The notes under the pieces: model-generated
The model's database searches: none
What the model saw: the letters and a program-made list of their open reading frames with translations, nothing else
What the model was told of the DNA's origin: nothing
Shown here: in pieces, positions 55,711-59,511 of the stretch
Layout: each line of letters starts with the position of its first letter
Numbering within the stretch: the first letter of the stretch is position 1
Translations under genes and position numbers: made by a program
Source of the DNA: Bradyrhizobium sp. SK17
Lineage (GTDB): Bacteria; Pseudomonadota; Alphaproteobacteria; Rhizobiales; Xanthobacteraceae
NCBI RefSeq assembly: GCF_002831585.1
Contig: NZ_CP025113.1
Coordinates: 2,681,001 to 2,745,000, forward strand
Direction: 5' to 3'
Length of the DNA stretch: 64,000 bases

Positions 55711-56100
55711 TCAGCCGGCTTGCGGCGGCGTGCCCTGGCGCTTGACGATCTGCTCGGCGAGCTCGATCAGGATCCGCTTGGTGTCGGAGTCCTGAACCTC
55801 GCGGAACACCCGCAACATGCGCAGCTCGAGCAGGGACTGTAGCGATTCCGTCGACTGGCTGCCGCTCCCAGGCTGCGCGGCGCCGGCGGTCTGGGGATTG
55901 AGCGTGGCGGCGGCGATCCCGAGCATCTCGGCGACATTTGCAAGGCGGCCGGCATCGATCTTCGCCGCCTCGGCGACGCCGGTCCTGGCCGGCAAGGACT
56001 CCGAGCACAAGATCTCGGCGAGATCACCCTGCGATAGCCCGATCGCGCGCCAGCGCGCCTGCACGAGTTGATCGATCTGGTCGTCCTGCGATGTGCTCAT
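55711..56100 (-). CDS. Possible XRE-like protein (129 aa)
   Basis: A 129-residue protein that begins MSTSQDDQIDQLVQARWRAI and continues with GLSQGDLAEILCSESLPART, which resembles the helix-turn-helix of XRE-type repressors but with only weak similarity. The centre contains a flexible Gly/Ala-rich stretch and the C-terminal half is helical (LELRMLRVFREVQDSDTKRI). It could be a regulator; I rate this as a possibility. It is upstream, on the same strand, of the EamA gene (155 bases apart). Confidence 0.5.
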   Translation of the reverse strand: MSTSQDDQIDQLVQARWRAIGLSQGDLAEILCSESLPARTGVAEAAKIDAGRLANVAEMLGIAAATLNPQTAGAAQPGSGSQSTESLQSLLELRMLRVFREVQDSDTKRILIELAEQIVKRQGTPPQAG

Positions 56101-56423: not shown

Positions 56424-57197
56424 TCACAGGTCGATGATCCCGAGTGCGATGCTCTTCGCCACCCCGTGGGTCTTGTTGGACGCCTCGAGCTTCCGCAATG
56501 CCTGCTTGATGAAACCTTCCACCGTTTCTGGCGAAATACCGAGAATCTGCGCGGTGTCCGCCACGGTCTTGCCGCGCGCCGCCCAAGCCATCACTTCCTT
56601 TTCCCGCCCCGTGAGCTTGATCGTCTCGGCGGCGTCGGCGGGCCTGAGGATGGTCGGCGCGTTGCGCTGGTCGCGGTTGACGATGTCCATCGCCCGCTGC
56701 ACCCAGTAGATCATCAACAGATGCAGCTCGTGCCGGTGGCAGATGAACAACTTGTCGAAGTCGCGCGGCTGGTCTTCCCAGAAGAACACCGTCGAACTCG
56801 AGTGCACGGCACCGAGCCGGTCGCGATAGTGGAAGGGCACGACGAAGCCCTGACGAAAGCCTTGGTCGCGCGCGGCCTCCATCATCTTCAATTCCGGCGG
56901 CCGCTTGCGGCCCTGCCGCTCCGGCAGCTTCAGCTCGCCCCAGTGAAACGGTGTGTTGGTACGCCGGACCCGGGTCAATGCCGGATCGGCATGGACGAAG
57001 TCGTTCTGGATGTAAGCGCGCTCCCATGCCGGCGCGTAGGTGCCGGTATGGTAGGGTAGATCGAGTTCGGGCCGGCCCGCATCGATGAAGGCAAAACTGG
57101 CGAAGCCATAGTCCTGAATGATGCGATGAAGCGAGAGTCGAAGCTCGTCGATCGTGCTCGACGCCTCGATACTCGTAATCGCTTCTTCCAAGACCAT
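56424..57197 (-). CDS. LuxR-family quorum-sensing regulator
   Basis: A 257-residue regulator. The N-terminal autoinducer-binding domain has FASFAFIDAGRPELDLPYHT and the YAPAWERAYIQNDFVHADPA block, in which the Trp, Tyr and Asp line the signal pocket. The C-terminal GerE-type HTH is LTGREKEVMAWAARGKTVAD plus ISPETVEGFIKQALRKLEAS. Start: ATG 57197. It diverges from luxI with a gap of 79 bases that contains a perfect palindrome. Presumed to sense the signal made by the neighbouring synthase. Confidence 0.93.
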   Translation of the reverse strand: MVLEEAITSIEASSTIDELRLSLHRIIQDYGFASFAFIDAGRPELDLPYHTGTYAPAWERAYIQNDFVHADPALTRVRRTNTPFHWGELKLPERQGRKRPPELKMMEAARDQGFRQGFVVPFHYRDRLGAVHSSSTVFFWEDQPRDFDKLFICHRHELHLLMIYWVQRAMDIVNRDQRNAPTILRPADAAETIKLTGREKEVMAWAARGKTVADTAQILGISPETVEGFIKQALRKLEASNKTHGVAKSIALGIIDL

Positions 57198-57205
57198 TGA
57201 GTAAA

Positions 57206-57222
57206 ACCCCGGTTTCCGGGGT
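57206..57222. promoter_or_regulatory. Lux-box-like palindrome between luxR and luxI
   Basis: Perfect inverted repeat ACCCCGG-TTT-CCGGGGT, 8 bases before the luxR start and 54 bases before the luxI start. In this position it would serve as a LuxR binding site. LuxI-promoter distance suggests activation; proximity to the luxR start suggests autoregulation. Confidence 0.6.
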
Positions 57223-57244: not shown

Positions 57245-57265
57245 CCAGATGCCGGCGACATCTGG
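57245..57265 (+). promoter_or_regulatory. Hairpin near the luxI ribosome-binding site
   Basis: CCAGATG / CATCTGG arms, 7-base loop, in the luxI leader. Its 3' arm ends with the first two bases (GG) of the Shine-Dalgarno-like GGAGG at 57264-57268. A second purine run GGAGGGA ends one base before the ATG. The hairpin could affect initiation. Confidence 0.4.
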
Positions 57266-57276
57266 AGGCGGAGGGA

Positions 57277-57951
57277 ATGTCGCACCCACTAGGGGAATAC
57301 CATGCGCTCGTCACGACCGAGGAGCGCCATCCGGCGCATGTTCAGGCGTTGCTCAGGCTGCGGAAGCGGCTGTTCGTCGACCATTGCGGCTGGATACTGA
57401 CCACGACAGGGGACGTCGAGCGTGACCAGTTCGACGTCTGGTATACGGAGCACTGTCTTCTGTTTCTCGGTTCGGAGCTGATCGGCGGCTTCCGCGCCAT
57501 CCGCACCGACTATCCCTATCTCACCAAATCGGTCTTCCCGCAGCTTGCGCAGCGTCGCTTTCCCAGCCGACGTGACGCTTGGGAGATCAGTCGTTTCGGC
57601 GTGTTGCCCGGGGTCACGGCATCGGCTGCGCGCGTCAACTACGCCCTGATGTTTCGCTTCGCCGAATTGCGCGGTGCGGACGCGCTGGTGGCGATGGCCG
57701 ACCTTACCTACGAGCGCTTCCTCGCGCGGATGCGCATCCAGACCCACCGCTACGGTCCACCGCAAGTGATCGGCAACGATCGCTTCGGCCGCCCGCTGAC
57801 GGCGCTCGCCGGCGAGATCCCGCTCGATCGCGCCGGCAATCCCGGCCTGAGCAAATTCATCGACCTTGGACGGCAATTGGAGATTCACGATGCCACACAT
57901 GTTCTCGGACGTTCGAGCCTTCCGGAGCGACCCGCTCAAATTCCTGCTTGA
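57277..57951 (+). CDS. Acyl-homoserine-lactone synthase (LuxI family)
   Basis: A 224-residue synthase that joins S-adenosylmethionine and an acyl donor to make a homoserine-lactone signal. All key LuxI residues are at the expected spacing: Arg29, Phe33, Trp39, Asp50, Asp53, Arg73, Glu103 and Arg106 (motif WEISRFGV). Length fits the family. In Bradyrhizobium, LuxI homologues use branched or aryl acyl-CoA donors (isovaleryl-, cinnamoyl-HSL), so the substrate need not be a fatty acyl-ACP. The gene overlaps the downstream P450 by 62 bases, suggesting coupled translation. Confidence 0.93.
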   Translation: MSHPLGEYHALVTTEERHPAHVQALLRLRKRLFVDHCGWILTTTGDVERDQFDVWYTEHCLLFLGSELIGGFRAIRTDYPYLTKSVFPQLAQRRFPSRRDAWEISRFGVLPGVTASAARVNYALMFRFAELRGADALVAMADLTYERFLARMRIQTHRYGPPQVIGNDRFGRPLTALAGEIPLDRAGNPGLSKFIDLGRQLEIHDATHVLGRSSLPERPAQIPA

Positions 57952-59254
57952 GCGTGGCAAGGGCGCGCCGCTCGGGCTGGTGCCGCTGCATCTCGGGCCG
58001 GCGCCGGTCCTGCTGGTCAACGATCCCGACCTGATCCGCCCGATCCTGAAGGCGCCGGAGACCGACGTCGGCAAGGGCCGGCTGATCAAGAAGCTTTCGC
58101 CGGTGCTCGGCCAAAGCTCGCTGATGCTCCATGGCGACGAGCATAAGCGCCGGCGTGCGGTGCTGCACAAGCACATGGCCAAGGGCAACGTCGAAAAATA
58201 CCTGCCGCAGATGTGCGCCGAAATCCGCGCGGTCGGTGCCAAGCTGGCGCGGCTCGGCTCGTTCGATCCGCATCGCTTCACGGCGACGCTGGCGCTGCGC
58301 ACGATCTGCATCGCGGTGTTCGGCGCGCAGGTGATCTCGTCCGGCGACGAGGAGGCCCTGGTGCAGGCGGTCGGCACCATCGAGGATGATCTCGCCGACG
58401 AGATGTTCCGCGTGATGCCGCTTGGTCCGGTGTCCTGGTATCGCAGGCGGCAGAACCGGATTTGCGCCAAGCTCGCGATGTCGACCGTGGTGCAGCGGCT
58501 GCGCTCTAGCGCTGGCTCGACCAGCGCGTTGCGCGACCTCGAGGCGCTCGGCCTCAGCGATCGCGACCTGCACGACGAAATCCTCACGCTGCTGCTGGCC
58601 GGCCACCACACCACCGGGTCGACCGCGGCCTGGGTGCTGTATCACATGGCGGCCAATCCGGCGCTGATGGACGAGATCGCCGACGAGGCCGCCGATTGCA
58701 TCGGCGACGACGGCGAATTGCGCGTCGACGCGGTCAGGCGCGCCGACGTCAGCGCAACGCTGGTCAAGGAGGTCTGCCGGCTCTATCCCAGCGCCTGGTG
58801 GTTCTCGCGCGAGGTGATGCAGCCGGTGACGATCGGCGGCCGCGATCTCAAGGTCGGCACCTCGCTGCTGATCTGCCCCTGGCAGTTGCAGCGGGACGAC
58901 AGGCATTTCGAGGACCCGGACCGCTTCCTGATGACGCGACGCTACAACACCGACGCCTACATCCCGTTTGGTGCCGGTCCGCGTGCCTGCGCCGGGATGG
59001 GGGTTGCGATGCTCGAATTGCAATTGCTCGCACTCGAGATCGCCGCGGCCTATCGGTTCACCGCCGTCAGCCCGAATCCGGCACCGTGGCCGAAGGCCTC
59101 GGTGACGCTCGTACCGCCGCCGATGACGATCGACATCGAAGTCCGCGAGGTGCGCCCGAGCATCCTGCATCTTGGCGAGGAAGCCGAGCAGTTGCCGTAC
59201 ATCCCACCCGTCGGCGCCGCCTCCATCAGCACACTGCAATCGGTATCCCAATGA
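57890..59254 (+). CDS. Cytochrome P450
   Basis: A 454-residue cytosolic P450. Oxygen-binding I-helix motif LLLAGHHTTGST, ExxR in KEVCRLYPSAWW, and the heme-binding loop FGAGPRACAGMG with the iron ligand Cys367. No membrane anchor. ATG 57890 is preceded by GGAGA (57879-57883) and lies inside luxI, so translation of both is probably coupled. The closest-looking P450s in context are bacterial hydroxylases of fatty or terpenoid acids; the substrate is unknown. Adjacent to the signal synthase, it might oxidise the signal, its acyl precursor or a downstream product. It needs a redox partner, and no ferredoxin gene is beside it. Confidence 0.93.
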   Translation: MPHMFSDVRAFRSDPLKFLLERGKGAPLGLVPLHLGPAPVLLVNDPDLIRPILKAPETDVGKGRLIKKLSPVLGQSSLMLHGDEHKRRRAVLHKHMAKGNVEKYLPQMCAEIRAVGAKLARLGSFDPHRFTATLALRTICIAVFGAQVISSGDEEALVQAVGTIEDDLADEMFRVMPLGPVSWYRRRQNRICAKLAMSTVVQRLRSSAGSTSALRDLEALGLSDRDLHDEILTLLLAGHHTTGSTAAWVLYHMAANPALMDEIADEAADCIGDDGELRVDAVRRADVSATLVKEVCRLYPSAWWFSREVMQPVTIGGRDLKVGTSLLICPWQLQRDDRHFEDPDRFLMTRRYNTDAYIPFGAGPRACAGMGVAMLELQLLALEIAAAYRFTAVSPNPAPWPKASVTLVPPPMTIDIEVREVRPSILHLGEEAEQLPYIPPVGAASISTLQSVSQ

Positions 59255-59511
59255 CAACTCAGCTTACAACGGCCAGCATCGGGCAGAGGGCGATGGATCA
59301 AGTGCAACTGCGCAGTTTGCGCGACGTCATCGCGGTGTTGATCGAGCAACGCAGCATCGTGACGGCGGCGGGCGCAGGCTTTGCCGCGCATCTGCTCGAT
59401 CTCGCGATCATGCAACTCAGGCTCAATGTCAACGATATCACGGCGGAAGAACTGACCGGCCTGTCGGATTTCGTTGGTGCGGAGTTCGCGAGGGACAAGT
59501 CCTCGCATTGA
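59251..59511 (+). CDS. Small protein of the luxI-P450 operon (86 aa)
   Basis: An 86-residue protein that overlaps the P450 stop by four bases (ATGA). It is predicted helical: QVQLRSLRDVIAVLIEQRSI, then GFAAHLLDLAIMQLRLNVND and EELTGLSDFVGAEFARD. No cysteine motif, so not a ferredoxin; no signal or membrane segment. I do not recognise the family. Coupling to luxI and P450 argues it is a real gene. Confidence 0.7.
   Translation: MTTQLTTASIGQRAMDQVQLRSLRDVIAVLIEQRSIVTAAGAGFAAHLLDLAIMQLRLNVNDITAEELTGLSDFVGAEFARDKSSH

What the first reader, a model, noticed from the sequence alone, without database searches (positions are those of the whole stretch)
57277..59511. AHL synthase coupled to a cytochrome P450 and an unknown small gene
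Seen: luxI overlaps the P450 gene by 62 bases, which overlaps an 86-codon gene by 4; all three share a strand and follow a palindromic promoter. P450 and luxI motifs are all intact (Cys367, AGHHTTGS; Arg29/Phe33/Trp39/Asp50/Asp53). Known: Bradyrhizobium LuxI enzymes use unusual acyl-CoA donors. Inferred: the P450 oxidises either the acyl donor or the signal, so this strain may make a hydroxylated or otherwise oxidised homoserine lactone, with the small gene as helper or regulator. I know of no described signal pathway with this layout.
Basis: partly seen in the sequence, partly recalled or inferred. Interest (0 to 1): 0.8.

Follow-up and report, generated by a model that had tools for sequence, protein, structure and literature searches.

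The report
Conserved LuxR–LuxI–P450 quorum-sensing operon
In this and many related soil and plant-associated bacteria, the gene that makes a cell-density signal overlaps a gene for an oxidising enzyme, which suggests that these bacteria communicate with an oxidised, not yet identified version of a common bacterial signal.

Summary

It is not a one-strain oddity. luxR-luxI-P450 is present in 21 of 22 loci of a genome scan (19 Bradyrhizobium, Microvirga, Methylocystis). All 31 genomes whose LuxI matched at E <= 1.3e-40 carry the P450; 0 of 24 other LuxI loci do. Outside the main Bradyrhizobium type the luxI/P450 overlap is exactly 41 nt in 21 of 28 loci, and a small ORF follows the P450 in 23 of 26, against 6 of 27 behind luxR.

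Most likely: a LuxR/LuxI circuit with a dedicated P450 that oxidises the acyl chain of the signal or of its donor; the small protein is probably a CinS-like regulator. The chemistry is inferred, not shown. Ten searches of an open-access library listed no paper on a luxI-linked P450.

The parts
57277..57951 (+). luxI, AHL synthase, 224 aa
   Evidence: PF00765 E 3.4e-13; catalytic residues invariant among six divergent members
57890..59254 (+). cytochrome P450, 454 aa, overlapping luxI by 62 nt
   Evidence: PF00067 E 2.6e-51; start conserved with GGAG upstream in 19 of 19 named Bradyrhizobium loci
59251..59511 (+). 86-aa small helical protein, overlapping the P450 by 4 nt (ATGA)
   Evidence: no Pfam or NCBIfam match; present in 19 of 19 named Bradyrhizobium loci; dN/dS 0.11 to 0.32 in four Bradyrhizobium pairs; three helices predicted at moderate confidence
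56424..57197 (-). luxR, divergent from luxI, 257 aa
   Evidence: PF03472 E 4.5e-20 and PF00196 E 2.8e-13
57206..57222 (.). 17-bp palindrome between luxR and luxI, probable LuxR operator
   Evidence: single copy in the genome with up to 2 mismatches; a 19-bp form ACCCCCGGTTTCCGGGGGT stands at the same place in 15 of 21 other Bradyrhizobium loci, variants in the rest
57245..57265 (.). second dyad (7-bp arms) just before the luxI ribosome site; hairpin or second operator
   Evidence: kept in 13 aligned leaders, mostly by invariant pairs and one G-C/G-U pair; weak evidence
55711..56100 (-). 129-aa gene behind luxR, degenerate relative of a PraR-type XRE regulator
   Evidence: hhalign 95.9% probability, E 5.5e-9, against the XRE protein L054:441-836; in 19 of 19 named Bradyrhizobium loci

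Best explanation
This is an AHL quorum-sensing circuit with a built-in tailoring enzyme. LuxI makes an acyl-homoserine lactone, probably from an ordinary fatty acyl-ACP. The P450, encoded on the overlapping reading frame, oxidises the acyl chain, either on the finished AHL or on its carrier-bound precursor. The divergent LuxR senses the product and controls the operon through the palindrome between luxR and luxI. The small protein encoded last is most likely a CinS-like partner of a PraR-type regulator. Shown: gene content, overlaps, conservation, purifying selection on the small gene, uniqueness of the operator in this genome. Inferred: co-transcription, acyl-ACP as donor, the oxidation step, LuxR's ligand and the role of the small protein.
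For: luxR-luxI-P450 in 21 of 22 loci of the genome scan. P450 directly downstream in all 31 genomes with LuxI at E <= 1.3e-40, 27 of which were not in the query alignment; 0 of 24 other LuxI loci have one. Overlap of exactly 41 nt in 21 of 28 loci outside the main Bradyrhizobium type and 11 of 21 within it, 62 nt in the other 10. Pairwise identities of LuxI and P450 correlate at 0.91 over 30 loci. The operator is single-copy in the genome, so its only recognisable target is this unit. The P450 model lies among P450s such as CYP175A1, CYP184A1, CYP46A1 and BM3, with BM3 variants solved with N-decanoyl-homoserine lactone among the Foldseek matches. Precedent: a luxI-linked enzyme gene needed for an unusual AHL in Mesorhizobium (PMC10470506).
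Against: No chemistry, expression or ligand data. P450 fold matches are near ties and do not give a substrate. LuxI-LuxR and P450-LuxR correlate as well as LuxI-P450, and shared species history is not controlled for. No LuxI-P450 fusion among the 120 listed of 324 homologues. No ferredoxin or reductase gene sits in the operon. Conserved overlap shows coupled expression, not a shared substrate.
Confidence: 0.6

Rival explanations
1. The P450 is an output: LuxI makes an ordinary AHL and the P450, switched on with it, makes a separate density-controlled metabolite from some other substrate.
For: The operator precedes the whole operon, so the P450 would be quorum-controlled in any case. P450s are common in secondary metabolism.
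Against: No other biosynthetic gene travels with the pair: beyond luxR, luxI, P450 and a small ORF the flanks (EamA, YbaK, PurA region) are Bradyrhizobium-specific. The tight 41-nt overlap with luxI itself across genera is more than an output gene needs.
Confidence: 0.2
2. The P450 is a built-in quencher: it oxidises the AHL to an inactive form and limits its own circuit.
For: Oxidation of AHLs by the P450 BM3 is cited in PMC5479921 (passages), and BM3 variants are solved with a C10 AHL.
Against: Equimolar coupling of synthesis and destruction from one overlapping message looks wasteful; conservation in all 31 genomes argues for a required step.
Confidence: 0.13
3. No functional link: the pair is a neutral neighbourhood held together by descent or co-transfer.
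For: Within Bradyrhizobium the flanking genes are conserved too: EamA in 19 of 19 and YbaK in 18 of 19 named loci.
Against: Outside Bradyrhizobium the flanks differ while luxR-luxI-P450 and the 41-nt overlap stay, with LuxI identities down to 34%.
Confidence: 0.05

Closest known systems
R1-I1-crotonase 'three linked gene' circuit of Mesorhizobium japonicum (PMC10470506; abstract and sections 11-13 seen)
   Same: luxR, luxI and a linked enzyme gene in one unit, conserved over several genera; the enzyme gene is needed for an unusual AHL
   Different: The third enzyme is a crotonase-superfamily protein 8 bp from the synthase gene, not a P450 in a 41- or 62-nt overlap; that LuxI is of the acyl-CoA type
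cinR-cinI-cinS with PraR of Rhizobium leguminosarum (PMC5977203, passages)
   Same: A small protein gene co-expressed with the AHL synthase gene, and a PraR-type regulator in play
   Different: No P450 there; homology of CinS to the small protein was not tested; the window's PraR-type gene is degenerate and lies next to luxR
BjaI/RpaI/BraI acyl-CoA AHL synthases (PMC4234381, passages and section 6)
   Same: Same LuxI family; a homologue lies on this genome's second contig
   Different: The window LuxI is nearer TofI and LasI and keeps the acyl-ACP-type helix
Polyhydroxylated AHLs of strain MOLA 401, with a P450 proposed by its authors (PMC5479921, passages)
   Same: Idea of P450-oxidised AHLs
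   Different: There only a P450 homologue somewhere in the genome is mentioned, with no gene link to luxI and no test

Membership tests
LuxI AHL synthase (PF00765) | Pfam match above the gathering score | tested here: met
   50 bits, cut-off 24
LuxI AHL synthase (PF00765) | Conserved R, F, W, D, D of the N-terminal region and E, R of the core | tested here: met
   R29, F33, W39, D50, D53, R73, E103, R106 invariant in six members
Acyl-CoA type LuxI clade (BjaI, RpaI) | Loss of conserved positive charges in the ACP-binding helix | tested here: not met
   R147 and R158 invariant and R151 in 5 of 6 members (Microvirga has Q); the RpaI-like LuxI of L105 lacks them
Cytochrome P450 (PF00067) | Pfam match and heme-binding Cys with the I-helix motif | tested here: met
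   175 bits, cut-off 22.8; Cys367 and GHHT invariant in 28 proteins
Named P450 equivalogs of NCBIfam (albaflavenone monooxygenase, pentalenene oxygenase and others) | Score above the curated cut-off | tested here: not met
   best 139.8 bits against a cut-off of 700
Three-component AHL circuit (Mesorhizobium type) | luxR, luxI and a linked enzyme gene conserved as a unit | tested here: met
Three-component AHL circuit (Mesorhizobium type) | The linked enzyme is required for the signal | not testable with these tools
   needs deletion and AHL analysis
Three-component AHL circuit (Mesorhizobium type) | The linked enzyme belongs to the crotonase superfamily | tested here: not met
   it is a P450
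CinS small regulator | Small protein encoded in one transcription unit with the AHL synthase | tested here: inconclusive
   layout and overlaps fit; transcription not measured
CinS small regulator | Sequence homology to CinS | not tested
   no CinS sequence was fetched
CinS small regulator | Binds a PraR-type repressor | not testable with these tools
   only gene proximity was seen
PraR-type XRE regulator (129-aa gene) | Homology over the length of the XRE protein | tested here: met
   hhalign 95.9%, E 5.5e-9 over 99 columns; that the XRE protein itself is of PraR type is recalled, not from a call
PraR-type XRE regulator (129-aa gene) | Intact helix-turn-helix at the Pfam gathering score | tested here: not met
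   no HTH match in two orthologues, HTH_3 at 15.2 bits (cut-off 23) in a third

The most novel reading that the evidence does not exclude
A widespread class of alphaproteobacterial quorum-sensing circuits uses an obligatorily oxidised AHL: LuxI and a translationally coupled P450 make it together, the paired LuxR answers only to the oxidised form, and a small helical protein from the same operon passes the density information on to a PraR-type regulator without needing the AHL.
Probability: 0.4. Interest if true: 0.85.

Novelty: new variant of a known kind. Interest (0 to 1): 0.7.

Why it matters
It would add a new enzyme class to AHL signal biosynthesis and predict a family of oxidised signals that standard AHL reporters may miss. 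The overlapping luxI/P450 pair is a simple genomic signature for finding producers, among them many Bradyrhizobium species of the group around B. elkanii. It also makes testable whether small CinS-like proteins are a common second output of AHL synthase operons.

Tried and rejected
A LuxI-P450 fusion as proof of function: none among the 120 listed of 324 P450 homologues, all 402-462 aa (candidates were capped). A named family for the small protein: no Pfam or NCBIfam match at E 0.001, only weak Pfam hits at a loose cut-off, no significant PDB sequence or fold match. A wider regulon: at 3 mismatches 24 operator-like rows, two of them the site itself, against 18 for the reversed control, so near chance. 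Palindromes elsewhere: in 19 of 31 loci the best palindrome lies 5-27 nt from the luxR side, but only 11 of these beat 93 or more of 100 shuffles, and for the window itself the best-scoring one was the second dyad, not the operator. P450 substrate from structure: top matches nearly tied, not decisive. Weaker LuxI hits (E above 1e-32): 4 of 18 have a P450 nearby, 22-29% identical to this one; I do not count them as the same unit. The small-ORF count uses loose rules (50-150 aa, start -40 to +120 from the P450 stop, Arg at most 13%) and surely holds some false ORFs; L051, L110 and L119 look doubtful. dN/dS: of ten pairs seven gave 0.09-0.34, one near-identical pair 0.68, two were saturated.

Papers: ten searches, several listing only the best 20 of more; no listed title or abstract opening names a luxI-linked P450. 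I looked inside eight papers: PMC10470506 (abstract, sections 11-13), PMC4234381 (passages, section 6), passages of PMC5479921, PMC8197338, PMC5977203 and PMC3386692, and term look-ups without hits in PMC5872303 and PMC13133039. The library lacks most subscription journals, so absence from print is not shown.

Full report
What is there. The window holds luxR (56424-57197, minus), luxI (57277-57951), a P450 (57890-59254) and an 86-aa gene (59251-59511); the last three are on the plus strand and overlap by 62 and 4 nt. LuxI, P450 and LuxR match their Pfam families and the small protein matches none. Between luxR and luxI lies the palindrome 57206-57222, whose first base is 9 nt beyond the luxR start. 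Behind luxR is a 129-aa gene (55711-56100).

How far it reaches. A scan of genome contigs with LuxI gave 22 loci: 19 Bradyrhizobium, Microvirga pudoricolor, Methylocystis rosea and one Pseudomonas. In 21 of 22 the divergent luxR and the downstream P450 are found; the Pseudomonas locus has no P450. All 19 Bradyrhizobium loci have the small gene and the 129-aa gene; the ATGA overlap was read in 18 of 19, the exception being L042, where the P450 is broken by a frame change. Searches of 60 relatives and of 391, 397, 385 and 398 genomes at family, order, class and phylum level (the sets overlap) gave 31 genomes, the window's own included, with LuxI at E <= 1.3e-40. All 31 have the P450 downstream on the same strand. 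The query was an alignment of LuxI alone, but from six loci already known to carry the P450; 27 of the 31 genomes were not in it. Controls: 0 of 24 other LuxI loci fetched have such a P450 within about 1.5 kb; of 18 weaker hits have a distant P450 and 14 none.

The overlap is the signature. With starts placed by homology, the luxI/P450 overlap is exactly 41 nt in 21 of 28 loci outside the main Bradyrhizobium type; the other seven are 140, 44, 1, -17, -19, -250 and -328 nt, the four negative ones (L107-L110) being the distant P450s, of which L107 could also start with a 4-nt overlap. In 21 Bradyrhizobium loci it is 41 nt in 11 and 62 nt in 10. The same stretch thus encodes the LuxI tail and the P450 start while LuxI identity falls to 34%.

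Co-divergence. Over 30 loci, pairwise identities correlate at 0.91 (LuxI-P450), 0.95 (LuxI-LuxR) and 0.91 (P450-LuxR). Shared species history is not controlled for.

Donor. The best PDB matches of LuxI are 3p2f (E 4.7e-17) and LasI (8.2e-12), ahead of the 4-coumaroyl enzyme 6wn0 (4.8e-8) and 5w8c/5w8a (1.7e-6); that these are TofI, RpaI and BjaI is recalled. The helix that acyl-ACP users keep and acyl-CoA users lose (PMC4234381) is kept here: R147 and R158 are invariant, R151 is in 5 of 6 members, Microvirga having Q. The RpaI-like LuxI on this genome's second contig lacks these charges. I therefore favour acyl-ACP, as inference.

Operator. The 17-bp palindrome has one exact copy in the genome and none with 1 or 2 mismatches. 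In 15 of 21 other Bradyrhizobium loci it is the 19-bp ACCCCCGGTTTCCGGGGGT, with variants in the rest; the window form is one base shorter in each arm. In 19 of 31 loci the best palindrome sits 5-27 nt from the luxR side with varying sequence; 11 of these stand out from shuffles.

Small gene and PraR-type genes. A small ORF follows the P450 in 23 of 26 evaluable loci outside the main type, against 6 of 27 behind luxR. Of ten pairs, seven from three lineages give dN/dS 0.09-0.34, one near-identical pair 0.68, two are saturated. The Bradyrhizobium protein is predicted as three helices at moderate confidence. Its closest paralogue in this genome (E 6.2e-4) lies about 0.6 kb from an XRE gene, and the 129-aa window gene is a degenerate relative of that XRE protein. 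Genes like that XRE gene number 2-3 per genome in ten genomes tested yet lie near the unit in 5 of 28 loci outside the main type, two of the five from one genus, one 5.6 kb away and one only a weak match. By a rough hand estimate about 0.2 would be expected. In Rhizobium leguminosarum CinS, co-transcribed with cinI, binds PraR (PMC5977203, passages). The parallel rests on position and size, not on tested homology.

Mechanism and rivals. I commit to tailoring of the signal or its donor by the P450 (0.6), over a separate output (0.2), self-quenching (0.13) and no link (0.05).

Against what is known. The nearest precedent is the Mesorhizobium R1-I1-crotonase circuit, which makes this a new variant of a known kind. 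An alphaproteobacterial P450 survey lists three P450s in hserlactone clusters, CYP127A3v1, CYP199A26 and CYP152C2 (PMC8197338, passages); whether any is of this family was not tested. Authors of a study of polyhydroxylated AHLs in strain MOLA 401 proposed a P450 without a gene link (PMC5479921). No title or abstract opening listed in my ten searches names a luxI-linked P450.

Noticed in passing
57245-57265: A second dyad, CCAGATG...CATCTGG, just before the luxI ribosome site is kept in 13 aligned Bradyrhizobium leaders, partly through a G-C/G-U change; it could be an RNA hairpin or a second operator.
   Followed up: partly
L107, L108, L109, L110: Four distant alphaproteobacterial LuxI loci also have a P450 downstream, 22-29% identical to this one, so luxI-P450 pairing may have arisen more than once or be older.
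   Followed up: partly
L054:441-836 (-) and L054:1420-1731 (+): In the window's own genome a paralogue of the small protein lies about 0.6 kb from an XRE gene of PraR type (naming recalled).
   Followed up: partly
L111, about 100 nt after the P450 stop: Instead of a short ORF there is a 211-aa ORF that begins like the small helical proteins and goes on with what looks like a PAS-type stretch (recalled, not searched).
   Followed up: no
L103, L104, L105 (own genome): The genome has three further LuxI relatives; L103 is nearest LasI, L105 on the second contig nearest the 4-coumaroyl enzyme. L104 was not compared.
   Followed up: partly
L042:5531-6891: The P450 of B. viridifuturi SEMIA 690 is frame-broken near residue 403; sequencing error or decay.
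   Followed up: no
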